From NCBI GenBank assembly GCA_003194525.1, contig NBIV01000151.1, positions 141,806 through 205,805 of the forward strand: 64,000 nucleotides of DNA, written 5' to 3'. Positions 43,857 to 64,000 of the stretch are shown piece by piece. The DNA is from Gracilariopsis chorda. Taxonomy: Eukaryota > Rhodophyta > Florideophyceae > Gracilariales > Gracilariaceae. The notes beneath the pieces are model-generated. The model saw nothing but the letters and a program-made list of their open reading frames with translations, searched no databases and was not told the DNA's origin. Position 1 is the stretch's first letter. Each line of letters starts with the position of its first letter. Made by a program: the position numbers and the translations under genes.

Positions 43857-43990
43857 CGCGGGTTTTTAGGGGTTTTTAGGGGATTTTAGGGGGTTTTAGG
43901 GGATGTAGGGGTTTTTAGGGGTTTTTTAGGGGATTTTAGGGGATTTTTGGGTTTTTAGGGGTTCTTAGGGGTTTTAGGGGTTTTTAGGGG
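43857..43990 (+). repeat. Degenerate telomeric repeat array (TTTTTAGGGG)n
   Basis: About 13-14 tandem copies of a 9-11 bp unit, most often TTTTTAGGGG, with variants ATTTTAGGGG, TTTTAGGGGG, TTCTTAGGGG and ATGTAGGGG. The G-rich strand runs 5' to 3' rightwards, so the original chromosome end points to the right of the window. It abuts the 3' end of the first retroelement unit and lies next to the truncated NB-ARC gene. Confidence 0.9.
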
Positions 43991-44137
43991 TTTTTTCCTT
44001 TTTAGGGGGTTGAGGGTGTGCGGCGTCGCGCAGGGAGCATAAGGGGGAGAGAGAGACGGCTTAAGGACTTAGAGTCCTCGGAAAGGGAGGGGGAGCAGCA
44101 GGGAAGGGGGGGGGAAGAAGGGAAAGAGGGAAAGGTT

Positions 44138-44173
44138 GGCAGAGCGCTTTCGTCTTTACGACTCCTCAGTGCC
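44138..44173 (-). ncRNA. Type I hammerhead ribozyme, unit 1
   Basis: Read on the minus strand: stem I 5' arm GGCA, core CUGAGGA, stem II GUC-GUAAA-GAC (including the conserved G10.1-C11.1 pair), GAAA, a self-complementary stem III AGCGCU, cleavage base C, and stem I 3' arm UGCC, which pairs perfectly with GGCA. All conserved core positions (C3 U4 G5 A6 N7 G8 A9, G12 A13 A14, A15.1-U16.1, H17) fit. The stem III is too short to close as a hairpin but can pair between two copies, as known for dimeric PLE hammerheads. It lies downstream (3') of RT and close to the telomeric joint. Confidence 0.88.
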
Positions 44174-44441
44174 TTGGTTGTTGGGGTGAGGAGGGAAGGA
44201 GATGGCCAGAGGGGAGTCTGGCACTCCTTATATATCCTCCAGATACCCTAGCACTGCTCTATCCTTTTCTACGCTGCATCCAGCAGTTTCTACGCAGGTT
44301 TCTACGGAGGGGGATCCAGGAGGATCCGTTACGTCTATCTGTAAACATCATGACCGTTTGTCACGTAACCACCACGTTATCGGCAACAAGACCGTTACAA
44401 CAAGGCGTGTAGGCTGTGACAACTTGTCCGTTACGAAACTG

Positions 44442-46259
44442 TCATGACCGTTGAATCTGGGTGGCCCGTTTTTGATTTTTCCAAAAATCGTGCCAATACG
44501 ACGTGTATAGTTGAATCTGACGGTTTCGGCGGGCCCGAGTGTTGGCCCTGTAGACGTTCCGCATTCCTGCACGGCCATGCGCACGCTGTTTAAAGTCTGC
44601 AGACTTTAAACAGGGTACCGCACTGATGACATGGCGGCTGACACTGTCGCCCTTCTTGAACAAGAGCGTACGTGGCCACTTCTCTCGAATTCCATGACGT
44701 GGCAGCTGACACTCAATCCAGGCTTGGAACTGGCGCCAATACTTCTTCATCTGTGGATGGAATCTGCACTTCACGAGGGATCCTAGGTCAGGAGGCTCCC
44801 GTTCCGCGCGTTCGAGATACTTTGCCCTGTCACGGTAGCTTACATAATCCAGCGCAGCGCGTAGATACTTTCCAGTGTATCCTCGATGCGCCAACATTCT
44901 GAACAAGTGAGCCACTTTGGCCTTCCACGTGCGTTCATCGGTGGTGTTCCGTAAATAGCGAATCAGTTCGCCCTTAACTACACCGGTGAACGTGTGCGTG
45001 GGATGGTTGGACTTGCCATGGAGGTACAGGAACTTGGAGATAGGCTTAGTGTACACCTTAACGTCCACGAGATTGTGGAAGAAGAATCTCCGCCCTTTGT
45101 ATATCTCCAGGTCCAGATAGACTGCCTTCTTTTCACGGATATCCCATGTCATGCGTAGGTTCGAACATGTGTTCAGTCGTTGCATGAGCAGGTCGGCAGC
45201 CTCTCTGTTCCGCAGTATCACGAGACCATCATCAATGTAGCGACGGTTGATGATGACACTGCTGACAAAGTCCTTGAAGATCCTTCGGAACTTATAGAAC
45301 AGGTACAGATTGGCAAAGGCAGGAGCTACGGCTGTTCCTGTTGCTGTGCCAACCAACTGTCTATGTACCCCATGTCCATCAGTCACGTAGTTGTTGTACA
45401 TGATTAACTGTAGTACTCGACACCAGAAGCCATTGTCAGCCATGAAGATCTTAGGTTGCTCCTTGGTTAACAGTCGTATGGCGTCCTTGATGTCGATACT
45501 GGGGTAACACCTCTCCACGTCATACGTTAAGAAAACGCAATCAGTAGGGAGGCGTATTTGTTCCAATTGCCGCACGGTCTGCCAGCTATTAACGGAAATA
45601 GCCGGTATCTTGAGTACCAGTTCGTTGAGGATGGTACTCAATTTTCTAGACAAATCCGCAGTGATATATGAATGCGATACGGTGATAGGTCTAGACTTGA
45701 CCGTGGGCTTGTGGATTTTCGGCAGTACATAGAAGGGTGCTGGGTCTTTGGCTCCTTGTGCATAGTGGAGGATCTCGTCATTGAACTTGCGTCCTTTTTG
45801 ACATACTTCGAGAATCACCAGGAGGTTACCGAGCAGGCTTCTAAGGGGGAAGGCACTGACTTCGGAGAATGCACCCTCGTGGATCTCCTTCTGCACAAGA
45901 CCGTCGTAGAACTCTCGGCTCATAAGCGTGAGACCAAGGTTCTTGTCGGCTTCTTTGATGACCCAGTCCATCTTCTTAATGTACCGGATTCCTCGCATCA
46001 ATGTAAGATGCAAGGATGGAGGTCGATCAATCCCCATACGAGTAATCTCTCTCTCAAGCTTTCCTTTGACTCGTATGTTGGAGGGAATGTCGACTCTCCC
46101 TTGCCCAGTTCCGAGTTCCTTGAAAAGTTGATCCACTGTGTCTTGCAGACATACCTTCAGTGGAGTTCTGAGCATGAACCCACCCCCAACCGAGAGTACC
46201 TTTTTGACGTCATATGGTACTTCGGAATCGGGAATTCCTACGGGTGGGTTGTACTTCAA
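44442..46259 (-). CDS. Penelope-like reverse transcriptase, unit 1
   Basis: A 605-residue RT of the endonuclease-lacking Penelope type; PLE reverse transcriptases are relatives of telomerase RT. Motifs by residue: EADKNLGLTLM (103-113), a PLE hallmark; FYVLPKIHKP (176-185); SRPIT (189-193); motif A TYDVERCYPSI with catalytic D247; motif B GTATGTAVAPAFANLYL (304-320); motif C RRYIDDGLVIL with D343-D344; motif D/E YLDLEIY; and the PLE-type thumb LYLHGKSNHPTHTFTGVVKG. After the thumb a basic tail ends at residue 605; no GIY-YIG domain follows. The first codon of the displayed ORF is TTG; the frame is open further upstream to about 46,345, so translation likely comes from ORF1 by -1 frameshifting. 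Confidence 0.92.
   Translation of the reverse strand: MKYNPPVGIPDSEVPYDVKKVLSVGGGFMLRTPLKVCLQDTVDQLFKELGTGQGRVDIPSNIRVKGKLEREITRMGIDRPPSLHLTLMRGIRYIKKMDWVIKEADKNLGLTLMSREFYDGLVQKEIHEGAFSEVSAFPLRSLLGNLLVILEVCQKGRKFNDEILHYAQGAKDPAPFYVLPKIHKPTVKSRPITVSHSYITADLSRKLSTILNELVLKIPAISVNSWQTVRQLEQIRLPTDCVFLTYDVERCYPSIDIKDAIRLLTKEQPKIFMADNGFWCRVLQLIMYNNYVTDGHGVHRQLVGTATGTAVAPAFANLYLFYKFRRIFKDFVSSVIINRRYIDDGLVILRNREAADLLMQRLNTCSNLRMTWDIREKKAVYLDLEIYKGRRFFFHNLVDVKVYTKPISKFLYLHGKSNHPTHTFTGVVKGELIRYLRNTTDERTWKAKVAHLFRMLAHRGYTGKYLRAALDYVSYRDRAKYLERAEREPPDLGSLVKCRFHPQMKKYWRQFQAWIECQLPRHGIREKWPRTLLFKKGDSVSRHVISAVPCLKSADFKQRAHGRAGMRNVYRANTRARRNRQIQLYTSYWHDFWKNQKRATQIQRS
44586..44613. repeat. 28-bp perfect palindrome in RT coding sequence
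   Basis: CTGTTTAAAGTCTG followed by its exact reverse complement, inside the RT tail (codons for LKSADFKQ). Also at 47849-47876, 51114-51141, 57657-57684 and 60917-60944; unit 4 has one extra A. Confidence 0.9.
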
Positions 46260-46269
46260 CTCCTTCGTA

Positions 46270-47205
46270 TCAAAGGAACCGGGCTTCCTCAGCCGAGAAC
46301 GGTTTAGTTTTGCTTGGCGCCCCGTCCGGCGGCGCCTCGCTTTCCGTTCTTTGGCTTCGGCTTTCCTCTCGACTTCGTTTTCCCCCAGATTGTTGTTGGC
46401 TTTTAGGGGTTTTGGGTTTCCCTTTAGGGGTTTTTAGGGGTCCCTCGCCTCTGGGGGGTTTATGAGAATTCTTAAGAGAACTAATGTCCTTCTTAAGTTG
46501 CTTCATCTCCTCCCGCAGCCGATCGACCCCCGCAGTTGCAGGAGCCTCCACTTCATCGGCCTCGGCGGCGGTTTTCTTCAGGAGGTCAGCGTTCTTCTTC
46601 TCATTTTCCACGAAGTGTCGGAAAGAGCTCTTAAGTTCAGTCTGAAGCCGGCTTTTCTCAAGTGAAGATTCGAGAAACTCCTTATAGCGGTTGAGAACGG
46701 AGGTCACTTGCGACTCTGCCATTTGTTTGGCAATGTGGTACGCATCGAATAGTGACTCCTCCAGCTTCTCCGTGGCTTCAGTGAATAGGCCTTTTCTCTC
46801 GTCAGCGAGGGCTTTTAGATCGGTAGCCCGGGCTTTGACGACAAGATCCAGCGTAGCAGTAACGAATGCATGCGCAATGTCCTTGAACTTAGAGTCAAAC
46901 TCATCAACCTGGGAACTCGGGAGTTGAGGCATTCGGGGCAAGACAATGGACTTTGGCACTGTCCCGTTGTCCTGATGCTTCATAAGTTCATCCAGGATGA
47001 TGCTTCTGCGAGCGATCTTCTCATCTACCTCAAGGATCTTCTTGCGATAAGGAGCGCAGACGCGATCCAAATGAGGCTTCACCACAGCATAGAGTTCATC
47101 GTCGGTATAATCCTTCTCCTCGTCGGCTGGAGATTGAAATGGATTTGCTTCGACTTCCTCTTCGGCTGGATGCTCGGCCATCTGTCGGGTGATGCGGCGA
47201 GACAT
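46270..47205 (-). CDS. PLE ORF1, unit 1 (altered C-terminus)
   Basis: Begins MSRRITRQMAEHPAEEEVEA at a good ATG just inside the 5' end of the unit. The first 270 residues equal unit 2 ORF1, with an acidic N-terminus, long helices (KALADERKGLFTEATEKLEE, LREEMKQLKKDISSL) that look like a coiled coil, and a basic KTPKGKPKTPK stretch. Because one C is missing from the run at 46,382, the last 40 residues are in another frame (ending EEARFL), so the usual RGKPKPKNGKRG basic tail is lost. It probably binds RNA or forms multimers in the RNP; that is inference from position and composition. Confidence 0.8.
   Translation of the reverse strand: MSRRITRQMAEHPAEEEVEANPFQSPADEEKDYTDDELYAVVKPHLDRVCAPYRKKILEVDEKIARRSIILDELMKHQDNGTVPKSIVLPRMPQLPSSQVDEFDSKFKDIAHAFVTATLDLVVKARATDLKALADERKGLFTEATEKLEESLFDAYHIAKQMAESQVTSVLNRYKEFLESSLEKSRLQTELKSSFRHFVENEKKNADLLKKTAAEADEVEAPATAGVDRLREEMKQLKKDISSLKNSHKPPRGEGPLKTPKGKPKTPKSQQQSGGKRSREESRSQRTESEAPPDGAPSKTKPFSAEEARFL
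46400..46440 (-). repeat. Telomere-like tract inside ORF1 coding region
   Basis: The plus strand reads TTTTAGGGGTTTTGGG, then CTTTAGGGG and TTTTTAGGGG in succession; on the minus strand this codes for GPLKTPKGKPKTPK. It is present in all complete units (unit 2: 49,664-49,704). Confidence 0.85.
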
Positions 47206-47400
47206 GGTGAAAGAGACTTGATCGGCGACGGCAACTACCCCACGGCGATTAGGGGTTTTTTCCTTTTTAGGGGGTTGAGGGTGTGCGGCGTCGCGCAGGG
47301 AGCATAAGGGGGAGAGAGAGACGGCTTAAGGACTTAGAGTCCTCGGAAAGGGAGGGGGAGCAGCAGGGAAGGGGGGGAAGAAGGGAAAGAGGGAAAGGTT

Positions 47401-47436
47401 GGCAGAGCGCTTTCGTCTTTACGACTCCTCAGTGCC
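47401..47436 (-). ncRNA. Type I hammerhead ribozyme, unit 2
   Basis: Identical core to the unit 1 copy. It stands about 195 bp upstream of ORF1 of unit 1 and 50-60 bp downstream of the TATA box, so a transcript of unit 1 would carry it near its 5' end. Confidence 0.88.
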
Positions 47437-47488
47437 TTGGTTGTTGGGGTGAGGAAGGAAGGAGATGGCCAGAGGGGAGTCTGGCACT

Positions 47489-47497
47489 CCTTATATA
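47489..47497 (-). promoter_or_regulatory. TATA box in the 3' region of unit 2 (drives unit 1)
   Basis: TATATAAGG on the minus strand, in GGATATATAAGGAG context. Transcription would start about 30 bp to the left (near 47,460), run through the ribozyme and into ORF1 of unit 1. The same box occurs at 44226-44234 (unit 1, facing the telomeric array), 50754-50762, 54009-54017, 57290-57297 (slightly changed), 60557-60565 and 63820-63828. Confidence 0.6.
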
Positions 47498-47704
47498 TCC
47501 TCCAGATACCCTAGCACTGCTCTATCCTTTTCTACGCTGCATCCAGCAGTTTCTACGCAGGTTTCTACGGAGGGGGATCCAGGAGGATCCGTTACGTCTA
47601 TCTGTAAACATCATGACCGTTTGTCACGTAACCACCACGTTATCGGCAACAAGACCGTTACAACAAGGCGTGTAGGCTGTGACAACTTGTCCGTTACGAA
47701 ACTG

Positions 47705-49522
47705 TCATGACCGTTGAATCTGGGTGGCCCGTTTTTGATTTTTCCAAAAATCGTGCCAATACGACGTGTATAGTTGAATCTGACGGTTTCGGCGGGCCCG
47801 AGTGTTGGCCCTGTAGACGTTCCGCATTCCTGCACGGCCATGCGCACGCTGTTTAAAGTCTGCAGACTTTAAACAGGGTACCGCACTGATGGCATGGCGG
47901 CTGACACTGTCGCCGTTCTTGAACAAGAGCGTACGTGGCCACTTCTCTCGAATTCCATGACGTGGCAGCTGACACTCAATCCAGGCTTGGAACTGGCGCC
48001 AATACTTCTTCATCTGTGGATGGAATCTGCACTTCACGAGGGATCCTAGGTCAGGAGGCTCCCGTTCCGCGCGTTCGAGATACTTTGCCCTGTCACGGTA
48101 GCTTACATAATCCAGCGCAGCGCGTAGATACTTTCCAGTGTATCCTCGATGCGCCAACATTCTGAACAAGTGAGCCACCTTGGCCTTCCACGTGCGTTCA
48201 TCGGTGGTGTTCCGTAAATAGCGAATCAGTTCGCCCTTAACTACACCGGTGAACGTGTGCGTGGGATGGTTGGACTTGCCATGGAGGTACAGGAACTTGG
48301 AGATAGGCTTAGTGTACACCTTAACGTCCACGAGATTGTGGAAGAAGAATCTCCGCCCTTTGTATATCTCCAGGTCCAGATAGACTGCCTTCTTTTCACT
48401 GATATCCCATGTCATGCGTAGGTTCGAACATGTGTTCAGTCGTTGCATGAGCAGGTCGGCAGCCTCTCTGTTCCGCAGTATCACGAGACCATCATCAATG
48501 TAGCGACGGTTGATGATGACACTGCTGACAAAGTCCTTGAAGATCCTTCGGAACTTATAGAACAGGTACAGATTGGCAAAGGCAGGAGCTACGGCTGTTC
48601 CTGTTGCTGTGCCAACCAACTGTCTATGTACCCCATGTCCATCAGTCACGTAGTTGTTGTACATGATTAACTGTAGTACTCGACGCCAGAAGCCATTGTC
48701 AGCCATGAAGATCTTAGGTTGCTCCTTGGTTAACAGTCGTATGGCGTCCTTGATGTCGATACTGGGGTAACACCTCTCCACGTCATACGTTAAGAAAACG
48801 CAATCAGTAGGGAGGCGTATTTGTTCCAATTGCCGCACGGTCTGCCAGCTATTAACGGAAATAGCCGGTATCTTGAGTACCAGTTCGTTGAGGATGGTAC
48901 TCAATTTTCTAGACAAATCCGCAGTGATATATGAATGCGATGCGGTGATAGGTCTAGACTTGACCGTGGGCTTGTGGATCTTCGGCAGTACATAGAAGGG
49001 TGCTGGGTCTTTGGCTCCTTGTGCATAGTGGAGGATCTCGTCATTGAACTTGCGTCCTTTTTGACATACTTCGAGAATCACCAGGAGGTTACCGAGCAGG
49101 CTTCTAAGGGGGAAGGCACTGACTTCGGAGAATGCACCCTCGTGGATCTCCTTCTGCACAAGACCGTCGTAGAACTCTCGGCTCATAAGCGTGAGACCAA
49201 GGTTCTTGTCGGCTTCTTTGATGACCCAGTCCATCTTCTTAATGTACCGGATTCCTCGCATCAATGTAAGATGCAAGGATGGAGGTCGATCAATCCCCAT
49301 ACGAGTAATCTCTCTCTCAAGCTTTCCTTTGACTCGTATGTTGGAGGGAATGTCGACTCTCCCTTGCCCAGTTCCGAGTTCCTTGAAAAGTTGATCCACT
49401 GTGTCTTGCAGACATACCTTCAGTGGAGTTCTGAGCATGAACCCACCCCCAACCGAGAGTACCTTTTTGACGTCATATGGTACTTCGGAATCGGGAATTC
49501 CTACGGGTGGGTTGTACTTCAA
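47705..49522 (-). CDS. Penelope-like reverse transcriptase, unit 2
   Basis: Full-length 605-residue RT, nearly identical to unit 1 (a few changes such as Ala for Val in the SHSYIT region and Ser for Arg before KKAVYL). All catalytic motifs are present (YDVERCYPS, GTAVAPAFANLY, YIDDG) and no endonuclease follows. With ORF1 intact as well, this is the most likely functional copy in the window. The 28-bp palindrome lies in its last 55 codons. Confidence 0.93.
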   Translation of the reverse strand: MKYNPPVGIPDSEVPYDVKKVLSVGGGFMLRTPLKVCLQDTVDQLFKELGTGQGRVDIPSNIRVKGKLEREITRMGIDRPPSLHLTLMRGIRYIKKMDWVIKEADKNLGLTLMSREFYDGLVQKEIHEGAFSEVSAFPLRSLLGNLLVILEVCQKGRKFNDEILHYAQGAKDPAPFYVLPKIHKPTVKSRPITASHSYITADLSRKLSTILNELVLKIPAISVNSWQTVRQLEQIRLPTDCVFLTYDVERCYPSIDIKDAIRLLTKEQPKIFMADNGFWRRVLQLIMYNNYVTDGHGVHRQLVGTATGTAVAPAFANLYLFYKFRRIFKDFVSSVIINRRYIDDGLVILRNREAADLLMQRLNTCSNLRMTWDISEKKAVYLDLEIYKGRRFFFHNLVDVKVYTKPISKFLYLHGKSNHPTHTFTGVVKGELIRYLRNTTDERTWKAKVAHLFRMLAHRGYTGKYLRAALDYVSYRDRAKYLERAEREPPDLGSLVKCRFHPQMKKYWRQFQAWIECQLPRHGIREKWPRTLLFKNGDSVSRHAISAVPCLKSADFKQRAHGRAGMRNVYRANTRARRNRQIQLYTSYWHDFWKNQKRATQIQRS

Positions 49523-49566
49523 CTCCTTCGTATCAAAGGAACCGGGCTTCCTCAGCCGAGAACGGT

Positions 49567-50469
49567 TTAGTTTTGCTTGGCGCCCCGTCCGGCGGCGCCT
49601 CGCTTTCCGTTCTTTGGCTTCGGCTTTCCTCTCGACTTCGTTTTCCCCCCAGATTGTTGTTGGCTTTTAGGGGTTTTGGGTTTCCCTTTAGGGGTTTTTA
49701 GGGGTCCCTCGCCTCTGGGGGGTTTATGAGAATTCTTAAGAGAACTAATGTCCTTCTTAAGTTGCTTCATCTCCTCCCGCAGCCGATCGACCCCCGCAGT
49801 TGCAGGAGCCTCCACTTCATCGGCCTCGGCGGCGGTTTTCTTCAGGAGGTCAGCGTTCTTCTTCTCATTTTCCACGAAGTGTCGGAAAGAGCTCTTAAGT
49901 TCAGTCTGAAGCCGGCTTTTCTCAAGTGAAGATTCGAGAAACTCCTTATAGCGGTTGAGAACGGAGGTCACTTGCGACTCTGCCATTTGTTTGGCAATGT
50001 GGTACGCATCGAATAGTGACTCCTCCAGCTTCTCCGTGGCTTCAGTGAATAGGCCTTTTCTCTCGTCAGCGAGGGCTTTTAGATCGGTAGCCCGGGCTTT
50101 GACGACAAGATCCAGCGTAGCAGTAACGAATGCATGCGCAATGTCCTTGAACTTAGAGTCAAACTCATCAACCTGGGAACTCGGGAGTTGAGGCATTCGG
50201 GGCAAGACAATGGACTTTGGCACTGTCCCGTTGTCCTGATGCTTCATAAGTTCATCCAGGATGATGCTTCTGCGAGCGATCTTCTCATCTACCTCAAGGA
50301 TCTTCTTGCGATAAGGAGCGCAGACGCGATCCAAATGAGGCTTCACCACAGCATAGAGTTCATCGTCGGTATAATCCTTCTCCTCGTCGGCTGGAGATTG
50401 AAATGGATTTGCTTCGACTTCCTCTTCGGCTGGATGCTCGGCCATCTGTCGGGTGATGCGGCGAGACAT
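49567..50469 (-). CDS. PLE ORF1, unit 2 (complete)
   Basis: 300 residues from ATG at 50,469 to TAA at 49,567. Acidic N-terminus; central helices; a coiled-coil-like LREEMKQLKKDISSLKNS at about 228-245; then a basic, Pro/Lys-rich tail with KTPKGKPKTPK and SRGKPKPKNGKRG. The KTPK part is encoded by telomere-like DNA (49,664-49,704). ORF1 overlaps RT in the -1 frame; the slip-site equivalent here reads A_AAG_AAC. No CCHC zinc knuckle is visible. Function is inferred: RNP or telomere-end binding for the element RNA. Confidence 0.88.
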   Translation of the reverse strand: MSRRITRQMAEHPAEEEVEANPFQSPADEEKDYTDDELYAVVKPHLDRVCAPYRKKILEVDEKIARRSIILDELMKHQDNGTVPKSIVLPRMPQLPSSQVDEFDSKFKDIAHAFVTATLDLVVKARATDLKALADERKGLFTEATEKLEESLFDAYHIAKQMAESQVTSVLNRYKEFLESSLEKSRLQTELKSSFRHFVENEKKNADLLKKTAAEADEVEAPATAGVDRLREEMKQLKKDISSLKNSHKPPRGEGPLKTPKGKPKTPKSQQQSGGKTKSRGKPKPKNGKRGAAGRGAKQN

Positions 50470-50665
50470 GGTGAAAGAGACTTGATCGGCGACGGCAACT
50501 ACCCCACGGCGATTAGGGGTTTTTTTCCTTTTTAGGGGGTTGAGGGTGTGCGGCGTCGCGCAGGGAGCATAAGGGGGAGAGAGAGACGGCTTAAGGACTT
50601 AGAGTCCTCGGAAAGGGAGGGGGAGCAGCAGGGAAGGGGGGGAAGAAGGGAAAGAGGGAAAGGTT

Positions 50666-50701
50666 GGCAGAGCGCTTTCGTCTTTACGACTCCTCAGTGC
50701 C
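50666..50701 (-). ncRNA. Type I hammerhead ribozyme, unit 3
   Basis: Same 36-nt motif without change, placed upstream of unit 2 ORF1. Confidence 0.88.
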
Positions 50702-50969
50702 TTGGTTGTTGGGGTGAGGAAGGAAGGAGATGGCCAGAGGGGAGTCTGGCACTCCTTATATATCCTCCAGATACCCTAGCACTGCTCTATCCTTTTCTAC
50801 GCTGCATCCAGCAGTTTCTACGCAGGTTTCTACGGAGGGGGATCCAGGAGGATCCGTTACGTCTATCTGTAAACATCATGACCGTTTGTCACGTAACCAC
50901 CACGTTATCGGCAACAAGACCGTTACAACAAGGCGTGTAGGCTGTGACAACTTGTCCGTTACGAAACTG

Positions 50970-52787
50970 TCATGACCGTTGAATCTGGGTGGCCCGTTTT
51001 TGATTTTTCCAAAAATCGTGCCAATACGACGTGTATAGTTGAATCTGACGGTTTCGGCGGGCCCGAGTGTTGGCCCTGTAGACGTTCCGCATTCCTGCAC
51101 GGCCATGCGCACGCTGTTTAAAGTCTGCAGACTTTAAACAGGGTACCGCACTGATGGCATGGCGGCTGACACTGTCGCCGTTCTTGAACAAGAGCGTACG
51201 TGGCCACTTCTCTCGAATTCCATGACGTGGCAGCTGACACTCAATCCAGGCTTGGAACTGGCGCCAATACTTCTTCATCTGTGGATGGAATCTGCACTTC
51301 ACGAGGGATCCTAGGTCAGGAGGCTCCCGTTCCGCGCGTTCGAGATACTTTGCCCTGTCACGGTAGCTTACATAATCCAGCGCAGCGCGTAGATACTTTC
51401 CAGTGTATCCTCGATGCGCCAACATTCTGAACAAGTGAGCCACCTTGGCCTTCCACGTGCGTTCATCGGTGGTGTTCCGTAAATAGCGAATCAGTTCGCC
51501 CTTAACTACACCGGTGAACGTGTGCGTGGGATGGTTGGACTTGCCATGGAGGTACAGGAACTTGGAGATAGGCTTAGTGTACACCTTAACGTCCACGAGA
51601 TTGTGGAAGAAGAATCTCCGCCCTTTGTATATCTCCAGGTCCAGATAGACTGCCTTCTTTTCACTGATATCCCATGTCATGCGTAGGTTCGAACATGTGT
51701 TCAGTCGTTGCATGAGCAGGTCGGCAGCCTCTCTGTTCCGCAGTATCACGAGACCATCATCAATGTAGCGACGGTTGATGATGACACTGCTGACAAAGTC
51801 CTTGAAGATCCTTCGGAACTTATAGAACAGGTACAGATTGGCAAAGGCAGGAGCTACGGCTGTTCCTGTTGCTGTGCCAACCAACTGTCTATGTACCCCA
51901 TGTCCATCAGTCACGTAGTTGTTGTACATGATTAACTGTAGTACTCGACGCCAGAAGCCATTGTCAGCCATGAAGATCTTAGGTTGCTCCTTGGTTAACA
52001 GTCGTATGGCGTCCTTGATGTCGATACTGGGGTAACACCTCTCCACGTCATACGTTAAGAAAACGCAATCAGTAGGGAGGCGTATTTGTTCCAATTGCCG
52101 CACGGTCTGCCAGCTATTAACGGAAATAGCCGGTATCTTGAGTACCAGTTCGTTGAGGATGGTACTCAATTTTCTAGACAAATCCGCAGTGATATATGAA
52201 TGCGATGCGGTGATAGGTCTAGACTTGACCGTGGGCTTGTGGATCTTCGGCAGTACATAGAAGGGTGCTGGGTCTTTGGCTCCTTGTGCATAGTGGAGGA
52301 TCTCGTCATTGAACTTGCGTCCTTTTTGACATACTTCGAGAATCACCAGGAGGTTACCGAGCAGGCTTCTAAGGGGGAAGGCACTGACTTCGGAGAATGC
52401 ACCCTCGTGGATCTCCTTCTGCACAAGACCGTCGTAGAACTCTCGGCTCATAAGCGTGAGACCAAGGTTCTTGTCGGCTTCTTTGATGACCCAGTCCATC
52501 TTCTTAATGTACCGGATTCCTCGCATCAATGTAAGATGCAAGGATGGAGGTCGATCAATCCCCATACGAGTAATCTCTCTCTCAAGCTTTCCTTTGACTC
52601 GTATGTTGGAGGGAATGTCGACTCTCCCTTGCCCAGTTCCGAGTTCCTTGAAAAGTTGATCCAATGTGTCTTGCAGACATACCTTCAGTGGAGTTCTGAG
52701 CATGAACCCACCCCCAACCGAGAGTACCTTTTTGACGTCATATGGTACATCGGAATCGGGAATTCCTACGGGTGGGTTGTACTTCAA
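50970..52787 (-). CDS. Penelope-like reverse transcriptase, unit 3
   Basis: A third full-length RT, differing from unit 2 in only a few residues (Asp for Glu near the start, Leu for Val in QDTLDQLF). All RT motifs are retained. Upstream the slip-site is the canonical A_AAA_AAC (52,874-52,880), but the ORF1 of this unit is broken, so it could not make the full fusion. Confidence 0.92.
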   Translation of the reverse strand: MKYNPPVGIPDSDVPYDVKKVLSVGGGFMLRTPLKVCLQDTLDQLFKELGTGQGRVDIPSNIRVKGKLEREITRMGIDRPPSLHLTLMRGIRYIKKMDWVIKEADKNLGLTLMSREFYDGLVQKEIHEGAFSEVSAFPLRSLLGNLLVILEVCQKGRKFNDEILHYAQGAKDPAPFYVLPKIHKPTVKSRPITASHSYITADLSRKLSTILNELVLKIPAISVNSWQTVRQLEQIRLPTDCVFLTYDVERCYPSIDIKDAIRLLTKEQPKIFMADNGFWRRVLQLIMYNNYVTDGHGVHRQLVGTATGTAVAPAFANLYLFYKFRRIFKDFVSSVIINRRYIDDGLVILRNREAADLLMQRLNTCSNLRMTWDISEKKAVYLDLEIYKGRRFFFHNLVDVKVYTKPISKFLYLHGKSNHPTHTFTGVVKGELIRYLRNTTDERTWKAKVAHLFRMLAHRGYTGKYLRAALDYVSYRDRAKYLERAEREPPDLGSLVKCRFHPQMKKYWRQFQAWIECQLPRHGIREKWPRTLLFKNGDSVSRHAISAVPCLKSADFKQRAHGRAGMRNVYRANTRARRNRQIQLYTSYWHDFWKNQKRATQIQRS

Positions 52788-52831
52788 CTCCTTCGGATCA
52801 AAAGAACCGGGCTTCCTCAGCCGAGAACGGT

Positions 52832-53727
52832 TTAGTTTTGCTTGGCGCCCCGTCCGGCGGCGCCTCGCTTTCCGTTTTTTGGCTTCGGCTTTCCTCTCGA
52901 CTTCGTCTTCCCCCCAGATTGTTGTTGGCTTTTAGGGGTTTTGGGTTTCCCTTTAGGGGTTTTTAGGGGTCCCTTGCCTCTGGGGGTTTATGAGAATTCT
53001 TAAGAGAACTAATGTCCTTCTTAAGTTGCTTCATCTCCTCCCGCAGCCGATCGACCCCCGCAGTTGCAGGAGCCTCCACTTCATCGGCCTCGGCGGCGGT
53101 TTTCTTCAGGAGGTCAGCGTTCTTCTTCTCATTTTCCACGAAGTGTCGGAAAGAGCTCTTAAGTTCAGTCTGAAGCCGGCTTTTCTCAAGTGAAGAGAAA
53201 CTCCTTATAGTGGTTGAGAACGGAGGTCACTTGCGACTCTGCCATTTGTTTGGCAATGTGGTACGCATCGAATAGTGACTCCTCCAGCTTCTCCGTGGCT
53301 TCAGTGAATAGGCCTTTTCTCTCGTCAGCGAGGGCTTTTAGATCGGTAGCCCGGGCTTTGACGACAAGATCCAGCGTAGCAGTAACGAATGCATGCGCAA
53401 TGTCCTTGAACTTAGAGTCAAACTCATCAACCTGGGAACTCGGGAGTTGAGGCATTCGGGCAAGACAATGGACTTTGGCACTGTCCCGTTGTCCTGATGC
53501 TTCATAAGTTCATCCAGGATGATGCTTCTGCGAGCGATCTTCTCATCTACCTCAAGGATCTTCTTGCGATAAGGAGCGCAGACGCGATCCAAATGAGGCT
53601 TCACCACAGCATAGAGTTCATCGTCGGTATAATCCTTCTCCTCGTCGGCTGGAGATTGAAATGGATTTGCTTCGACTTCCTCTTAGGCTGGATGCTCGGC
53701 CATCTGTCGGTTGATGCGGCGAGACAT
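52832..53727 (-). pseudogene. PLE ORF1, unit 3 (broken)
   Basis: Same protein as unit 2 ORF1 but interrupted: a 6-bp-scale deletion at about 53,196 (the GATTCG of the other units is missing), a missing G near 53,459 and a new stop near the N-terminus at about 53,684. The C-terminal half up to the basic tail is conserved. Confidence 0.8.
52844..52880 (-). promoter_or_regulatory. Candidate -1 frameshift signal between ORF1 and RT
   Basis: In unit 3 the ORF1 codons read CCA AAA AAC, giving the heptamer A_AAA_AAC (52874-52880). After a 9-nt spacer, GGCGCC pairs with a second GGCGCC across a 9-nt loop (52844-52864). The -1 frame from this point is open into RT. Unit 5 has the same at 59,384-59,420; units 1 and 2 have A_AAG_AAC (unit 1: 46,346-46,352) with the same hairpin. 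Confidence 0.5.
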
Positions 53728-53921
53728 GGTGAAAGAGACTTGATCGGCGACGGCAACTACCCCACGGCGATTAGGGTTTTTTCCTTTTTAGGGGGTTGAG
53801 GGTGTGCGGCGTCGCGCAGGGAGCATAAGGGGGAGAGAGAGACGGCTTAAGGACTTAGAGTCCTCGGAAAGGGAGGGGGAGCAGCAGGGAAGGGGGGGAA
53901 GAAGGGAAAGAGGGAAAGGTT

Positions 53922-53957: not shown

Positions 53958-54224
53958 TTGGTTGTTGGGGTGAGGAGGGAAGGAGATGGCCAGAGGGAGT
54001 CTGGCACTCCTTATATATCCTCCAGATACCCTAGCACTGCTCTATCCTTTTCTACGCTGCATCCAGCAGTTTCTACGCAGGTTTCTACGGAGGGGGATCC
54101 AGGAGGATCCGTTACGTCTATCTGTAAACATCATGACCGTTTGTCACGTAACCACCACGTTATCTGCAACAAGACCGTTACAACAAGGCGTGTAGGCTGT
54201 GACAACTTGTCCGTTACGAAACTG

Positions 54225-56088: not shown

Positions 56089-57000
56089 TTAGTTTTGGCT
56101 TGGCGCCCCGTCCGGCGGCGCCTCGCTTTCCGTTTTTTTGGCTTCGGCTTTCCTCTCGACTTCGTCTTCCCCCCAGATTGTTGTTGGCTTTTAGGGGTTT
56201 TGGGTTTCCCCTTTAGGGTTTTTAGGGTCCTTGCCTCTGGGGGGTTTATGAGAATTCTTAAGAGAACTGATGTCCTTCTTAAGTTGCTTCATCTCCTCCC
56301 GCAGCCGATCGACCCCCGCAGTTGCAGGAGCCTCCACTTCATCGCCCTCGGCGGCGGTTTTCTTCAGGAGGTCAGCGTTCTTCTTCTCATTTTCCACGAA
56401 GTGTCGGAAAGAGCTCTTAAGTTCAGTCTGAAGCCGGCTTTTCTCAAGTGAAGGATTCGAGAAAACTCCTTATAGCGGTTGAGAACGGAGGTCACTTGCG
56501 ACTCTGCCATTTGTTTGGCAATGTGGTACGCATCGAATAGTGACTCCTCCAGCTTCTCCGTGGCTTCAGTGAATAGGCCTTTTCTCTCGTCAGCGAGGGC
56601 TTTTTAGATCGGTAGACCGGGCTGTTGACGACAAGATCCAGCGTAGCAGTAACGAATGCCATGCGCATGTCCTTTGAACTTAGAGTCAAACTCATCAAAC
56701 CTGGGAACTCGGGAGTGAGGCAATTTCGGGGCAAGACAATGGACTTTTGGCACTGTCCCGTTGTCCTGATGCTTCATAAGTTCATCCAGGATGATGCTTC
56801 TGCGAGCGATCTTCTCATCTACCTCAAGGATCTTCTTGCGATAAGGAGCGCAGACGCGATCCAAATGAGGCTTCACCACAGCATAGAGTTCATCGTCGGT
56901 ATAATCCTTCTCCTCGTCGGCTGGAGATTGAAAATGGATTTGCTTCGACTTCCTCTTCGGCTGGATGCTCGGCCATCTGTCGGTTGATGCGGCGAGACAT
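56089..57000 (-). pseudogene. PLE ORF1, unit 4 (broken)
   Basis: Split into several frames by single-base indels (for example near 56,452, 56,601, 56,660, 56,725, 56,931). N-terminal and coiled-coil segments are recognisable. Confidence 0.8.
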
Positions 57001-57199
57001 GGTGAAAGAGACTTGATCGGCGACGGCAACTACCCCACCGGCGATTAGGGGTTTTTTTCCTTTTTAGGGGGTTGAGGGTGTTGCGGCGTCGCGCAGGGAG
57101 CATAAGGGGGAGAGAGAGACGGCTTAAGGACTTTAGAGTCCTCGGAAAGGGAGGGGAGGCAGCAGGGAAGGGGGGGAAGAAGGAAAAGAGGGAAAGGTT

Positions 57200-57235
57200 G
57201 GCAGAGCGCTTTCGTCTTTACGACTCCTCAGTGCC
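57200..57235 (-). ncRNA. Type I hammerhead ribozyme, unit 5
   Basis: Unchanged motif, in an indel-rich unit. Confidence 0.87.
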
Positions 57236-57509
57236 TTGGTTGTTGGGGTGAGGAGGGAAGGAGATGGCCAGAGGGGAGTCTGGCACTCTCTTATATATCC
57301 TCCAGATTACCCTAGCCACTGCTCCTATCCTTTTCTACGCTGCATCCAGCAGTTTCTACGCAGGTTTCTACGGAGGGGGATCCCAGGAGGATCCGTTACG
57401 TCTATCTGTAAACATCATGACCGTTTGTCACGTAACCACCACGTTATCGGCAACAAGACCGTTACAACAAGGCGTGTAGGCTGTGACAACTTGTCCGTTA
57501 CGAAAACTG

Positions 57510-59371
57510 TCATGACCGTTGAATCTGGGTGGCCCGTTTTTGATTTTTTCCAAAAAATCGTGCCAATACGACGTGTATAGTTGAATCTGACGGTTTCGGC
57601 GGGCCCGAGTGTTGGCCCTGTAGACGTTCCGCATTCCTGCACGGCCAATGCGCACGCTGTTTAAAGTCTGCAGACTTTAAACAGGGTACCGCACTGATGA
57701 CATGGCGGCTGACACTGTCGCCGTTCTTGAAACAAGAGCGTACGTGGCCACTTCTCTCGAATTCCATGACGTGGCAGCTGACACTCAATCCAGGCTTGGA
57801 ACTGGCGCCAATACTTCTTCATCTGTGGATGGAATCTGCACTTCACGAGGGATCCTAGGTCAGGAGGCTCCCGTTCCGCGCGTTCGAGATACTTTGCCCT
57901 GTCACGGTAGCTTACATAATCCAGCGCAGCGCGTAGATACTTTCCAGTGTATCCTCGATGCGCAACATTCTGAACAAGTGAGCCACCTTGGCCTTCCACG
58001 TGCGTTCATCGGTGGTGTTCCGTAAATAGCGAATCAGTTCGCCCTTAACTACACCGGTGAACGTGTGCGTGGGATGGTTGGACTTGCCATGGAGGTACAG
58101 GAACTTGGAGATAGGCTTAGTGTACACCTTAACGTCCACGAGATTGTGGAAGAAGAATCTCCGCCCTTTGTATATCTCCAGGTCCAGATAGACTGCCTTC
58201 TTTTCACTGATATCCATGTCATGCGTAGGTTCGAACATGTGTTCAGTCGTTGCATGAGCAGGTCGGCAGCCTCTCTGTTCGCAGTATCACGAGACCATCA
58301 TCAATGTAGCGACGGTTGATGATGACACTGCTGACAAAGTCCTTGAAGATCCTTCGGAACTTATAGAACAGGTACAGATTGGCTAAGGCAGGAGCTACGG
58401 CTGTTCCTGTTGCTGTGCCAACCAACTGTCTATGTACCCCATGTCCATCAGTCCACGTAGTTGTTGTACATGATGAACTGTAGTACTCGACACCAGAAGC
58501 CATTGTCAGCCATGAAGATCTTAGGTTGCTCCTTGGTTAACAGTCGTATGGCGTCCTTGATGTCGATACTGGGGTAACACCTCTCCACGTCATACGTTAA
58601 GAAAACGCAATCAGTAGGGAGGCGTATTTGTTCCAATTGCCGCACGGTCTGCCAGCTATTAACGGAAATAGCCGGTATCTTGAGTACCAGTTCGTTAAGG
58701 ATGGTACTCAATTTTCTAGACAAATCCGCAGTGATATATGAATGCGATGCGGTGATAGGTCTAGACTTGACCGTGGGCTTGTGGATCTTCGGCAGTACAT
58801 AGAAGGGTGCTGGTCTTTGGCTCCTTGTGCATAGTGGAGGATCTCGTCATTGAACTTGCGTCCTTTTTGACATACTTTCGAGAATCACCAGGAGGTTACC
58901 GAGCAGGCTTCCAAGGGGAAGGCACTGACTTCGGAGAATGCACCCTCGTGGATCTCCTTCTGCACAAGACCGTCGTAGAATTCTCGGCTCATAAGCGTGA
59001 GACCAAGGTTCTTGTCGGCTTCTTTGATGACCCAGTCCATCTTCTTAATGTACCGGATTCCTCGCATCAATGTAAGATGCAAGGATGGAGGTCGATCAAT
59101 CCCCATACGAGTAATCTCTCTCTCAAGCTTTCCTTTGACTCGTATGTTGGAGGGAATGTCGACTCTCCCTTGCCCAGTTCCGAGTTCCTTGAAAGTTGAT
59201 CCACTGTGTCTTGCAGACATACCTTCAGTGGAGTTCTGAGCATGAACCCACCCCCAACCGAGAGTACCTTTTTGACGTCATATGGTACTTCGGAATCGGG
59301 GAATTCCTACGGGTGGGTTGTACTTCAACTCCTTCGGATCAAAGGAACCGGCTTCCTAAGCCGAGAACGGT
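57510..59371 (-). pseudogene. Penelope-like reverse transcriptase, unit 5 (broken)
   Basis: Same RT as unit 2 with frame breaks near 57,546, 57,652, 57,730, 57,962, 58,214, 58,280, 58,454, 58,813, 58,879 and 59,193. RT motifs A to C are still readable in separate frames (VERCYPSIDI at about 58,600, YIDDGLVIL at about 58,300). Confidence 0.85.
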
Positions 59372-60273
59372 TTAGTTTTGCTTGGCGCCCCGTCCGGCGG
59401 CGCCTCGCTTTCCGTTTTTTGGCTTCGGCTTTCCTCTCGACTTCGTCTTCCCCCCAGATTGTTGTTGGCTTTTAGGGGTTTTGGGTTTCCCTTTAGGGGT
59501 TTTTAGGGGTCCCTTGCCTCTGGGGGGTTTATGAGAATTCTTAAGAGAACTAATGTCCTTCTTAAGTTGCTTCATCTCCTCCCGCAGCCGATCGACCCCC
59601 GCAGTTGCAGGAGCCTCCACTTCATCGGCCTCGGCGGCGGTTTTCTTCAGGAGGTCAGCGTTCTTCTTCTCATTTTCCACGAAGTGTCGGAAAGAGCTCT
59701 TAAGTTCAGTCTGAAGCCGGCTTTTCTCAAGTGAAGATTCGAGAAACTCCTTATAGCGGTTGAGAACGGAGGTCACTTGCGACTCTGCCATTTGTTTGGC
59801 AATGTGGTACGCATCGAATAGTGACTCCTCCAGCTTCTCCGTGGCTTCAGTGAATAGGACTTTTCTCTCGTCAGCGAGGGCTTTTAGATCGGTAGCCCGG
59901 GCTTTGACGACAAGATCCAGCGTAGCAGTAACGAATGCATGCGCAATGTCCTTGAACTTAGAGTCAAACTCATCAACCTGGGAACTCGGAGTTGAGGCAT
60001 TCGGGGCAAGACGATGGACTTTGGCACTGTCCCGTTGTCCTGATGCTTCATAAGTTCATCCAGGATGATGCTTCTGCGAGCGATCTTCTCATCTACCTCA
60101 AGGATCTTCTTGCGATAAGGAGCGCAGACGCGATCCAAATGAGGCTTCACCACAGCATAGAGTTCATCGTCGGTATAATCCTTCTCCTCGTCGGCTGGAG
60201 ATTGAAATGGATTTGCTTCGACTTCCTCTTCGGCTGGATGCTCGGCCATCTGTCGGGTGATGCGGCGAGACAT
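59372..60273 (-). pseudogene. PLE ORF1, unit 5 (one frameshift)
   Basis: Complete except for one missing G near 59,991, which separates the first 96 residues from the rest. The C-terminal part ends RGKPKPKNGKRGAAGRGAKQ, as in unit 2, and carries the canonical A_AAA_AAC heptamer (59,414-59,420). Confidence 0.85.
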
Positions 60274-60468
60274 GGTGAAAGAGACTTGATCGGCGACGGC
60301 AACTACCCCACGGCGATTAGGGGTTTTTTCCTTTTTAGGGGGTTGAGGGTGTGCGGCGTCGCGCAGGGAGCATAAGGGGGAGAGAGAGACGGCTTAAGGA
60401 CTTAGAGTCCTCGGAAAGGGAGGGGGAGCAGCAGGGAAGGGGGGGAAGAAGGGAAAGAGGGAAAGGTT

Positions 60469-60504
60469 GGCAGAGCGCTTTCGTCTTTACGACTCCTCAG
60501 TGCC
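60469..60504 (-). ncRNA. Type I hammerhead ribozyme, unit 6
   Basis: Unchanged motif, upstream of unit 5 ORF1. Confidence 0.88.
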
Positions 60505-60772
60505 TTGGTTGTTGGGGTGAGGAGGGAAGGAGATGGCCAGAGGGGAGTCTGGCATTCCTTATATATCCTCCAGATACCCTAGCACTGCTCTATCCTTTTC
60601 TACGCTGCATCCAGCAGTTTCTACGCAGGTTTCTACGGAGGGGGATCCAGGAGGATCCGTTACGTCTATCTGTAAACATCATGACCGTTTGTCACGTAAC
60701 CACCACGTTATCGGCAACAAGACCGTTACAACAAGGCGTGTAGGCTGTGACAACTTGTCCGTTACGAAACTG

Positions 60773-62634
60773 TCATGACCGTTGAATCTGGGTGGCCCGT
60801 TTTTGATTTTTCCAAAAATCGTGCCAATACGACGTGTATAATTGAATCTGACGGTTTCGGCGGGCCCGAGTGTTGGCCCTGTAGACGTTCCGCATTCCTG
60901 CACGGCCATGCGCACGCTGTTTAAAGTCTGCAGACTTTAAACAGGGTACCGCACTGATGACATGGCGGCTGACACTGTCGCCCTTCTTGAACAAGAGCGT
61001 ACGTGGCCACTTCTCTCGAATTCCATGACGTGGCAGCTGACACTCAATCCAGGCTTGGAACTGGCGCCAATACTTCTTCATCTGTGGATGGAATCTGCAC
61101 TTCACGAGGGATCCTAGGTCAGGAGGCTCCCGTTCCGCGCGTTCGAGATACTTTGCCCTGTCACGGTAGCTTACATAATCCAGCGCAGCGCGTAGATACT
61201 TTCCAGTGTATCCTCGATGCGCCAACATTCTGAACAAGTGAGCCACCTTGGCCTTCCACGTGCGTTCATCGGTGGTGTTCCGTAAATAGCGAATCAGTTC
61301 GCCCTTAACTACACCGGTGAACGTGTGCGTGGGATGGTTGGACTTGCCATGGAGGTACAGGAACTTGGAGATAGGCTTAGTGTACACCTTAACGTCCACG
61401 AGATTGTGGAAGAAGAATCTCCGCCCTTTGTATATCTCCAGGTCCAGATAGACTGCCTTCTTTTCACTGATATCCCATGTCATGCGTAGGTTCGAACATG
61501 TGTTCAGTCGTTGCATGAGCAGGTCGGCAGCCTCTCTGTTCCGCAGTATCACGAGACCATCATCAATGTAGCGACGGTTGATGATGACACTGCTGACAAA
61601 GTCCTTGAAGATCCTTCGGAACTTATAGAAACAGGTACAGATTGGCAAAGGCAGGAGCTACGGCTGTTCCTGTTGCTGTGCCAACCAACTGTCTATGTAC
61701 CCCATGTCCATCAGTCACGTAGTTGTTGTACATGATGAACTGTAGTACTCGACACCAGAAGCCATTGTCAGCCATGAAGATCTTAGGTTGCTCCTTGGTT
61801 AACAGTCGTATGGCGTCCTTGATGTCGATACTGGGGTAACACCTCTCCACGTCATACGTTAAGAAAACGCAATCAGTAGGGAGGCGTATTTGTTCCAATT
61901 GCCGCACGGTCTGCCAGCTATTAACGGAAATAGCCGTATCTTGAGTACCAGTTCGTTAAGGATGGTACTCAATTTTCTAGACAAATCCGCAGTGATATAT
62001 GAATGCGATGCGGTGATAGGTCTAGACTTGACCGTGGGCTTGTGGATCTTCGGCAGTACATAGAAGGGTGCTGGGTCTTTGGCTCCTTGTGCATAGTGGA
62101 GGATCTCGTCATTGAACTTGCGTCCTTTTTGACATACTTCGAGAATCACCAGGAGGTTACCGAGCAGGCTTCCAAGGGGGAAGGCACTGACTTCGGAGAA
62201 TGCACCCTCGTGGATCTCCTTCTGCACAAGACCGTCGTAGAATTCTCGGCTCATAAGCGTGAGACCAAGGTTCTTGTCGGCTTCTTTGATGACCCAGTCC
62301 ATCTTCTTAATGTACCGGATTCCTCGCATCAATGTAAGATGCAAGGATGGAGGTCGATCAATCCCCATACGAGTAATCTCTCTCTCAAGCTTTCCTTTGA
62401 CTCGTATGTTGGAGGGAATGTCGACTCTCCCTTGCCCAGTTCCGAGTTCCTTGAAGAGTTGATCCACTGTGTCTTGCAGACATACCTTCAGTGGAGTTCT
62501 GAGCATGAACCCACCCCCAACCGAGAGTACCTTTTTGACGTCATATGGTACTTCGGAATCGGGAATTCCTACGGGTGGGTTGTACTTCAACTCCTTCGGA
62601 TCAAAGGAACCGGGCTTCCTAAGCCGAGAACGGT
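60773..62634 (-). pseudogene. Penelope-like reverse transcriptase, unit 6 (broken)
   Basis: RT C-terminal two-thirds is open from 61,648 to 60,773 (including YIDDG), motif A and B lie in another frame (61,907-61,623) because of an extra A near 61,628, and the N-terminal third is fused in frame to ORF1. A missing G near 61,935 separates the last two. Confidence 0.87.
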
Positions 62635-63539
62635 TTAGTTTTGCTTGGCGCCCCGTCCGGCGGCGCCTCGCTTTCCGTTTTTTTTGGCTTCGGCTTTCCT
62701 CTCGACTTCGTCTTCCCCCAGATTGTTGTTGGCTTTTAGGGGTTTTGGGTTTCCCTTTAGGGGTTTTTAGGGGTCCCTTGCCTCTGGGGGGTTTATGAGA
62801 ATTCTTAAGAGAACTAATGTCCTTCTTAAGTTGCTTCATCTCCTCCCGCAGCCGATCGACCCCCGCAGTTGCAGGAGCCTCCACTTCATCGGCCTCGGCG
62901 GCGGTTTTCTTCAGGAGGTCAGCGTTCTTCTTCTCATTTTCCACGAAGTGTCGGAAAGAGCTCTTAAGTTCAGTCTGAAGCCGGCTTTTCTCAAGTGAAG
63001 ATTCGAGAAACTCCTTATAGCGGTTGAGAACGGAGGTCACTTGCGACTCTGCCATTTGTTTGGCAATGTGGTACGCATCGAATAGTGACTCCTCCAGCTT
63101 CTCCGTGGCTTCAGTGAATAGGACTTTTCTCTCGTCAGCGAGGGCTTTTAGATCGGTAGCCCGGGCTTTGACGACAAGATCCAGCGTAGCAGTAACGAAT
63201 GCATGCGCAATGTCCTTGAACTTAGAGTCAAACTCATCAACCTGGGAACTCGGGAGTTGAGGCATTCGGGGCAAGACGATGGACTTTGGCACTGTTCCCG
63301 TTGTCCTGATGCTTCATAAGTTCATCCAGGATGATGCTTCTGCGAGCGATCTTCTCATCTACCTCAAGGATCTTCTTGCGATAAGGAGCGCAGACGCGAT
63401 CCAAATGAGGCTTCACCACAGCATAGAGTTCATCGTCGGTATAATCCTTCTCCTCGTCGGCTGGAGATTGAAATGGATTTGCTTCGACTTCCTCTTCGGC
63501 TGGATGCTCGGCCATCTGTCGGGTGATGCGGCGAGACAT
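62635..63539 (-). pseudogene. PLE ORF1, unit 6 (frameshifted, fused to RT)
   Basis: The first 90 residues (63,539-63,295) are in one frame, then an extra T at about 63,295 shifts the rest. From 63,292 the frame runs through the coiled coil and the basic region (KKRKARRRRTGRQAKLNRS) straight into the RT N-terminus. This shows what the -1 frameshift product of the other units would look like. Confidence 0.85.
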
Positions 63540-63589
63540 GGTGAAAGAGACTTGATCGGCGACGGCAACTACCCCACGGCGATTAGGGG

Positions 63590-64000
63590 TTTTTTTCCTT
63601 TTTAGGGGGTTGAGGGTGTGCGGGTCGCGCAGGGAGCATAAGGGGAGAGAGAGACGGCTTAAGGACTTAGAGTCCTCGGAAAGGAGGGGGGCAGCAGGGA
63701 AGGGGGGGAAGAAGGGAAAGAGGGAAAGGTTGGCAGAGCGCTTTCGTCTTTACGACTCCTCAGTGCCTTGGTTGTTGGGGTGAGGAGGGAAGGAGATGGC
63801 CAGAGGGGAGTCTGGCACTCCTTATATATCCTCCAGATACCCTAGCACTGCTCTATCCTTTTCTACGCTGCATCCAGCAGTTTCTACGCAGGTTTCTACG
63901 GAGGGGGATCCAGGAGGATCCGTTACGTCTATCTGTAAACATCATGACCGTTTGTCACGTAACCACCACGTTATCGGCAACAAGACCGTTACAACAAGGC
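63590..64000 (-). mobile_element. Telomeric Penelope-like element, unit 7 (partial)
   Basis: The 3' region of a seventh unit runs out of the window. It contains the ribozyme and TATA box that would serve unit 6, so the array continues to the right. Confidence 0.88.
63732..63767 (-). ncRNA. Type I hammerhead ribozyme, unit 7
   Basis: Unchanged motif in the partial last unit, upstream of unit 6 ORF1. Confidence 0.88.

What the first reader, a model, noticed from the sequence alone, without database searches (positions are those of the whole stretch)
43857..64000. A chromosome end built of head-to-tail endonuclease-lacking Penelope-like elements
Six full units and one partial unit of about 3.26 kb stand in one orientation, the first attached by its 3' end to telomeric repeats whose G-strand points right. 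Short telomeric tracts (TTAGGGGTTTTTT) lie at each joint. RT lacks any GIY-YIG domain. Known background: EN-deficient PLEs attach to telomeres in bdelloid rotifers, fungi, plants and some protists. Inference: G-strand 3' ends prime copying of the element RNA, so repeated additions build a terminal array that may replace or supplement telomerase in this organism. Such a long regular array with a 3'-end telomere joint is a strong case.
Basis: partly seen in the sequence, partly recalled or inferred. Interest (0 to 1): 0.95.

Follow-up and report, generated by a model that had tools for sequence, protein, structure and literature searches.

The report
Telomere-attached retroelement arrays in red seaweed
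In a red seaweed, several chromosome ends carry rows of near-identical copies of a jumping gene that lacks a DNA-cutting enzyme and carries a self-cutting RNA motif and a stretch matching the chromosome tip; it probably copies itself straight onto the tip, a kind of element already known elsewhere, here beside a normal telomerase gene.

Summary
The window is the right end of contig C151 of Gracilariopsis chorda. Six full units of about 3.26 kb and a partial seventh run off the contig end, attached by the 3' end to telomeric DNA. The RT is PLE-like and has no GIY-YIG match. The genome holds at least three such families. Of 16 boundaries between element and other DNA, 12 lie at a contig end with the 3' end inward, 2 are subtelomeric and 2 internal.

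(1) A telomerase gene is present and at least 20 contig ends carry plain telomere, so replacing telomerase is not supported. (2) Joints inside arrays are part of the element, not traces of repeated telomere additions: in family C, 57 of 67 joints, all within arrays, read AAAGGGG, and the other 10 read T(T/A)(A/G)GGGG.

Best reading: a red-algal member of the telomere-associated EN-deficient PLEs (Athena/Terminon type). The chromosome's G-strand primes copying at a built-in telomere complement of a tandem template, and telomerase caps the product. Whether arrays grow by copying or by recombination is open.

The parts
43860..43995 (+). Telomeric tract, G-strand pointing right, irregular T(3-6)AGGGG repeats, between unique DNA and the array
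   Evidence: Tandem Repeats Finder; sequence
43984..47248 (-). Unit 1; 3' end on the telomeric tract
   Evidence: joint positions; boundaries set by me at the TTAGGGGTTTTTT tract, which unit 1 shares with the telomeric tract
47249..50512 (-). Unit 2
50513..53770 (-). Unit 3
53771..57044 (-). Unit 4 (frames broken by small indels)
57045..60316 (-). Unit 5 (frames broken; haplotype changes within the unit)
60317..63582 (-). Unit 6 (frames broken)
63583..64000 (-). Unit 7, partial, cut by the contig end
46270..47205 (-). ORF1 of unit 1, 311 aa, no family above its Pfam cut-off
44442..46259 (-). Reverse transcriptase ORF of unit 1, 605 aa, motif RRYIDDG, no GIY-YIG
44227..44235 (-). TATA-like box TATATAAGG in the 3' UTR, 59-67 nt before the ribozyme core in families A, B and C
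   Evidence: promoter role inferred
44138..44173 (-). Minimal hammerhead ribozyme, predicted cleavage between 44142 and 44141
   Evidence: core letters by reading; copies; alignment of families; Rfam silent
44018..44029 (-). Conserved GCGACGCCGCAC before the telomere complement; could pair with GUUGCCGUCGCC (47224-47235) across a joint
   Evidence: pairing not tested by covariation
43984..43998 (-). Telomere complement GGAAAAAACCCCUAA in the RNA, proposed priming site; same joint at 47249-47263 and at each later unit

Best explanation
[quoted passage not shown] Their RNA carries a telomere complement (AAAAACCCC). The G-rich 3' end of a chromosome anneals there and primes reverse transcription, so the 3' end of the element faces inward. 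The complement is internal to a tandem (or circular) transcript, which reads: TATA-like box, hammerhead ribozyme, pyrimidine-rich spacer, telomere complement, ORF1, RT, and the same block again. Copying through the joint gives head-to-tail units without telomeric repeats laid between them. Telomerase caps the product where copying stopped or the end broke, and the cycle can start again. Once tandem, arrays are probably also lengthened and homogenised by recombination. Shown: anatomy, orientation, two classes of joint, caps, a TERT gene. Inferred: priming, transcript start, ribozyme activity, telomerase activity, recombination.
For: Attachment point the same in 10 of 11 sequenced joints to longer telomeric tracts: A in C151, C247, C497, C591, C157; B in C3, C263; C in C269, C505, C343; the eleventh (C343, inner) starts further in at a GGGG microhomology. 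In-array joints constant: 46 of 46 distinct A joints in fetched sequence carry one TTAGGG(G) tract; in family C 57 of 67 read AAAGGGG, the other 10 T(T/A)(A/G)GGGG, nine of those ten seen against telomeric DNA. Caps: C247 is one unit cut in ORF1 and followed by telomere to the contig end; in C343 a cut element is followed by about 540 bp of telomere and a further element. TERT. Ribozyme and TATA-like box shared by three families. 36 of 75 RT matches cover query 1-593 without a stop.
Against: No activity data. C157 and C58 are internal copies. Caps fit breakage and healing as well as incomplete copying. Byte-identical units and haplotype blocks fit DNA-level amplification as well. Rfam does not report the ribozyme.
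Confidence: 0.76

Rival explanations
1. Arrays grow mainly at DNA level (unequal exchange, break-induced replication or rolling circle), as recalled and read for yeast Y' arrays; reverse transcription only seeds them.
For: Three byte-identical units in C461 and no substitution between C334 and C1034 units; haplotype blocks and a haplotype change inside unit 5 of C151; single additions with readable outer ends are short or cut.
Against: The first tandem joint still has to be made, and in C343 a segment of one unit plus 0.77 kb across a tandem joint lies between telomeric sequences, as copying of a tandem RNA would give; but terminal loss from a longer array would give the same.
Confidence: 0.45
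2. Stepwise growth: telomerase adds a little telomere to the last unit, then one new unit is added, again and again.
For: Seen in C343, where stubs and a unit are each separated by a single repeat and a later element by about 540 bp.
Against: 57 of 67 family C joints carry no telomeric T before GGGG; 46 of 46 in-array A joints have a constant tract.
Confidence: 0.08
3. The arrays are an assembly artefact.
For: Twelve contigs of 12.6-24.0 kb that carry A joints and little else as far as seen; indel noise in the later units of C151.
Against: Different unique flanks at C151, C247, C497 and C591; three families with different unit lengths (about 3265, 3090-3123 and 2980 bp) behave alike; C247 is a single capped copy.
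Confidence: 0.04

Closest known systems
Athena and Terminon EN-deficient PLEs of bdelloid rotifers (passages of PMC6431247, and PMC3846280)
   Same: No GIY-YIG in the RT protein; 3' end on the G-rich telomeric strand; hammerhead motif with a reverse-complement telomeric stretch downstream; telomere-capped copies; head-to-tail arrays described.
   Different: Here 3.0-3.3 kb with two ORFs (passage: two-ORF EN-less PLEs typically 4-6 kb, Terminons up to 40 kb); 153-176 nt between ribozyme cleavage site and telomere complement, described as immediately downstream in Terminons; very regular arrays with constant element-encoded joints; red-algal host.
Canonical tandem PLE, Poseidon of Anolis (two of four parts of PMC11167929)
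   Same: Tandem units, hammerhead in the repeated region, reverse transcription starting inside the RNA downstream of the hammerhead.
   Different: That element has a GIY-YIG endonuclease and starts at a site not homologous to the target; here the start site matches the telomere.
HeT-A/TART/TAHRE of Drosophila (passages of PMC4700185)
   Same: Head-to-tail arrays at chromosome ends; for HeT-A a promoter in the 3' UTR.
   Different: Non-LTR elements in a host without telomerase; here PLE-type RT and TERT present.
Y' arrays of yeast telomerase survivors (passage of PMC4700185)
   Same: Tandem subtelomeric units.
   Different: Not a PLE; that they spread by recombination is recalled.

Membership tests
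Telomere-associated EN-deficient PLE | PLE-type reverse transcriptase | tested here: inconclusive
   PF00078 match; groups with RT relatives incl. two with a GIY-YIG match, against TERT, in a quick tree; no named Athena/Coprina/Penelope protein was available
Telomere-associated EN-deficient PLE | No GIY-YIG endonuclease domain | tested here: met
   one GIY-YIG match in the genome, not PLE-linked
Telomere-associated EN-deficient PLE | Located at chromosome ends, 3' end attached to the telomeric G-strand | tested here: met
   12 of 16 boundaries at contig ends, 2 subtelomeric, 2 internal; contig ends are not proven chromosome ends
Telomere-associated EN-deficient PLE | Telomeric repeats added at the 5' side of copies | tested here: met
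   C247, C343; most arrays run off the contig, so untested there
Telomere-associated EN-deficient PLE | Hammerhead motif with downstream telomere complement (as in Terminons) | tested here: met
   motif recognised from the core letters; distance 153-176 nt; Rfam silent
Hammerhead ribozyme | Self-cleavage | not testable with these tools
   needs an in vitro assay
Athena or Coprina clade | RT groups within that clade | not tested
   no named reference sequences; the window RT lies in a 25-row clade of mostly unnamed relatives
Telomerase-replacing retroelement (HeT-A type) | Host lacks telomerase and simple telomeres | tested here: not met
   TERT gene; at least 20 plain telomeric contig ends

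The most novel reading that the evidence does not exclude
The element works like a telomerase with a 3-kb repeat: ribozyme-processed circular (or tandem) RNA presents the telomere complement as an internal template, and the chromosome tip is extended round and round it, laying down several identical units in one event. The evidence does not exclude this: constant joints without telomeric repeats, a ribozyme upstream of the priming site in all three families, byte-identical units in one array.
Probability: 0.17. Interest if true: 0.88.

Novelty: new member of a known kind. Interest (0 to 1): 0.55.

Why it matters
It brings EN-deficient telomeric PLEs to a red alga, with three families side by side, so that shared parts (ribozyme, TATA-like box, telomere complement) stand out from diverged coding sequence. 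The two classes of joint give a simple sequence test of how such arrays grow, and the host keeps a telomerase gene, so the interplay can be studied. The genome also shows a T(4-6)AGGGG telomere; a 2020 review calls red-algal telomere information mostly missing or fragmentary (passage of PMC7046594).

Tried and rejected
Replacement of telomerase: not supported, given TERT and plain telomeres. An endonuclease elsewhere in the family: one genomic GIY-YIG match, not PLE-linked. Rfam for the ribozyme: no hammerhead family reported; the best other matches were far below their gathering scores. Relatives in viral contigs: none (one search had 51 pattern stretches, none confirmed). A template hairpin across the joint: the outer stem is invariant in three families, so covariation cannot test it, and the isolated fold of A and B pairs the CCCC of the complement with GGGG; kept as a lead only. 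PDB: the window RT alone matched nothing; a profile matched group II intron-type and other RTs best and TERT only at E 0.52-0.69, so a special kinship to TERT is not shown here. Synonymous and nonsynonymous counts between A haplotypes are too small and not clearly purifying (for example 5 and 8 codons). The tree is the quick one; the careful search did not finish and several rows have long branches. Evidence against 'ends only': C157, C58, and interstitial telomeric tracts in C277, C373 and C406.

Rows dropped: four flank pieces before the SNP table; 15 full units out of 66 pieces for identities; 42 of 120 listed RT relatives, plus the window RT and 4 TERT pieces, in the tree. Capped lists: one search scored 40 of 254 candidates, one search scored 73 of 365, one search scored 40 of 142, and searches list only the first 100 places, so genome counts are lower bounds.

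Full report
Observation. The window is the last 64 kb of contig C151 (205,805 bp) in a genome of 91.3 Mb and 1081 contigs. A 1034-aa piece of its telomerase gene is 100% identical to a protein that NCBI names telomerase reverse transcriptase of Gracilariopsis chorda, on a contig of the same length, 236,516 bp; so the host is that red seaweed. Seven joints bound six full units and a partial seventh, and the array runs off the contig. The first unit abuts a telomeric tract at 43860-43995. The RT frame is open in units 1-3 and ORF1 in units 1-2.

Genome-wide picture. The A joint word (up to 3 mismatches) occurs 79 times in 16 contigs, in one orientation per contig; the reversed control has none. 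A protein search with relative P0003 found A copies at 66-67% identity to the query, family B (C3, C263) at 58-59%, family C (C117, C269, C343, C505, C578) at 51%, and more diverged or broken copies (C266 61%, C157 68%); 36 of 75 matches cover query 1-593 without a stop. Pieces of B and C that I held are 41-58% and 45-53% identical to the window RT. Of 16 boundaries between element and other DNA, 12 lie at a contig end with the 3' end inward: C3, C117, C151, C247, C263, C269, C319, C343, C497, C505, C591 and C907 (whose total length I did not obtain). Two lie 4 and 14 kb inside a terminal telomere (C306, C266). Two are internal: C157 at 14.6 kb of 179.7 kb, with about two and a half telomeric repeats on its 3' side and no telomeric cap on the other, and C58 at 225.6 kb of 312.7 kb. 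C58, C117, C306, C319 and C907 rest on coordinates of joints, ribozyme words and telomere tracts, not on sequence read through the boundary; for C266 the 3' joint was looked for in 801 bases and not seen.

Telomerase. The TERT gene is on C110 (PF12009, 103.7 bits; TERT_C and RVT_1 in the full protein). Twenty contig ends finish in telomeric repeats by the tract coordinates and the lengths. One of these, C247, has an element directly inside the telomere.

The 3' region. In all three families the sense strand reads TATATAAGG, 59-67 nt, hammerhead core, 153-176 nt of mostly pyrimidines up to the telomere complement, with GCGACGCCGCACA shortly before it. The 32-letter ribozyme word (up to 2 mismatches) occurs 169 times, the reversed control never. 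In the aligned copies it differs between families only at free position 7 of the core and in loop II. The reading as a hammerhead is mine, from the recalled core letters. A review describes PLE hammerheads as usually minimal, lacking helix III (passage of PMC6155905). Rfam does not report it.

Joints. Ten of eleven sequenced attachments to longer telomeric tracts start at one family-specific point; the eleventh, inside C343, starts further in at a GGGG microhomology. In A, 50 distinct joints were in hand: 46 in arrays, each with one TTAGGG(G) tract and small homopolymer differences, and 4 on telomere. Family C separates two classes among 67 joints: 57 read AAAGGGG (three of them with a shifted run, AAAAGGGGTTTT) and lie within arrays; 10 read T(T/A)(A/G)GGGG. 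Of these ten, nine were seen next to telomeric DNA by sequence or tract coordinates, two of them in C343 after a single repeat; C907:2023 was not checked. So units of an array were copied or recombined through the joint, not added one by one onto telomeric repeats.

Single additions. C247 holds one unit cut in ORF1 and followed by telomere to the contig end. C343 shows, from inside out: telomere, two stubs of about 205 bp, a full unit, 0.77 kb of a second unit across a tandem joint, about 540 bp of telomere, and a further element. Both stubs end at the same base of a TCACCACC site about 50 nt past the TATA-like box. Joint pairs 226 bp apart in C117 and 205 bp apart in C907 suggest similar stubs, which I could not read. 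I infer that stubs are cDNAs primed at the telomere complement near the RNA's 5' end and run to that end.

Unit variation. Units form haplotype blocks. Three units of C461 are byte-identical; C334 and C1034 share a haplotype (0 substitutions); clean units of other contigs differ by up to 28 substitutions in about 3265 bp; C151 changes haplotype within unit 5. This fits recombination or template switching on top of copying; misassembly cannot be excluded in the noisy units.

Relatives. A search of about 5.8 billion proteins gave 141 RT relatives, most from unnamed sources; of the 120 listed, one (P0118) carries a precomputed GIY-YIG domain, and a weak one below the cut-off was seen in a turtle protein. 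In a quick tree the window RT lies in a fully supported clade of 25 rows without these two.

Known background. Passages of PMC6431247 describe rotifer Terminons: EN-deficient, head-to-tail arrays, copies cut by telomeric repeats, and a hammerhead whose fold exposes reverse-complement telomeric repeats for pairing with the G overhang. Passages of PMC3846280 describe EN-deficient PLEs primed from chromosome ends in animals, fungi, protists and plants. Two of four parts of PMC11167929 show that a PLE with endonuclease starts reverse transcription inside its RNA. The primary papers of 2007, 2017 and 2021 that I asked for were not held. Searches for a red-algal or Gracilariopsis case (listings and abstract starts seen) showed none to me, in an open-access library only.

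Verdict. An EN-deficient telomeric PLE in a red alga, a new member of a known kind, in unusually regular arrays. The open and testable point is whether multi-unit arrays are laid down by copying tandem or circular RNA or grow by recombination.

Noticed in passing
window 42927-43844 (+): An NB-ARC domain ORF (PF00931, 71.9 bits) ends 15 bp before the telomeric tract.
   Followed up: no
C60, C95, C140, C345, C355-C357 and other contig ends: Plain telomere of this red alga is an irregular T(4-6)AGGGG repeat.
   Followed up: partly
window 46402-46445 (-): A telomere-like tract lies inside ORF1 and encodes a K/P-rich tail; a similar tract is in family C (L100), not seen in the B piece L097.
   Followed up: no
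window 46316-46336 (-): A GGCGCC...GGCGCC hairpin near the end of ORF1 lies in sequence conserved at DNA level in pieces of B and C.
   Followed up: no
window 46259-46400 (-): The RT open frame extends upstream into ORF1 in another frame (653-663 aa open frame), so frameshifting or reinitiation may express the RT.
   Followed up: no
C306:82600, C60:340081, C639:12997: Contig ends share a short subtelomeric sequence before the telomere.
   Followed up: no
C277:24581, C373:44009, C406:30356: Interstitial telomeric tracts away from contig ends; whether elements lie next to them was not looked at.
   Followed up: no
one search hit list: Many RT relatives come from contigs about one unit long (3.1-3.4 kb), as collapsed tandem arrays would give.
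   Followed up: no
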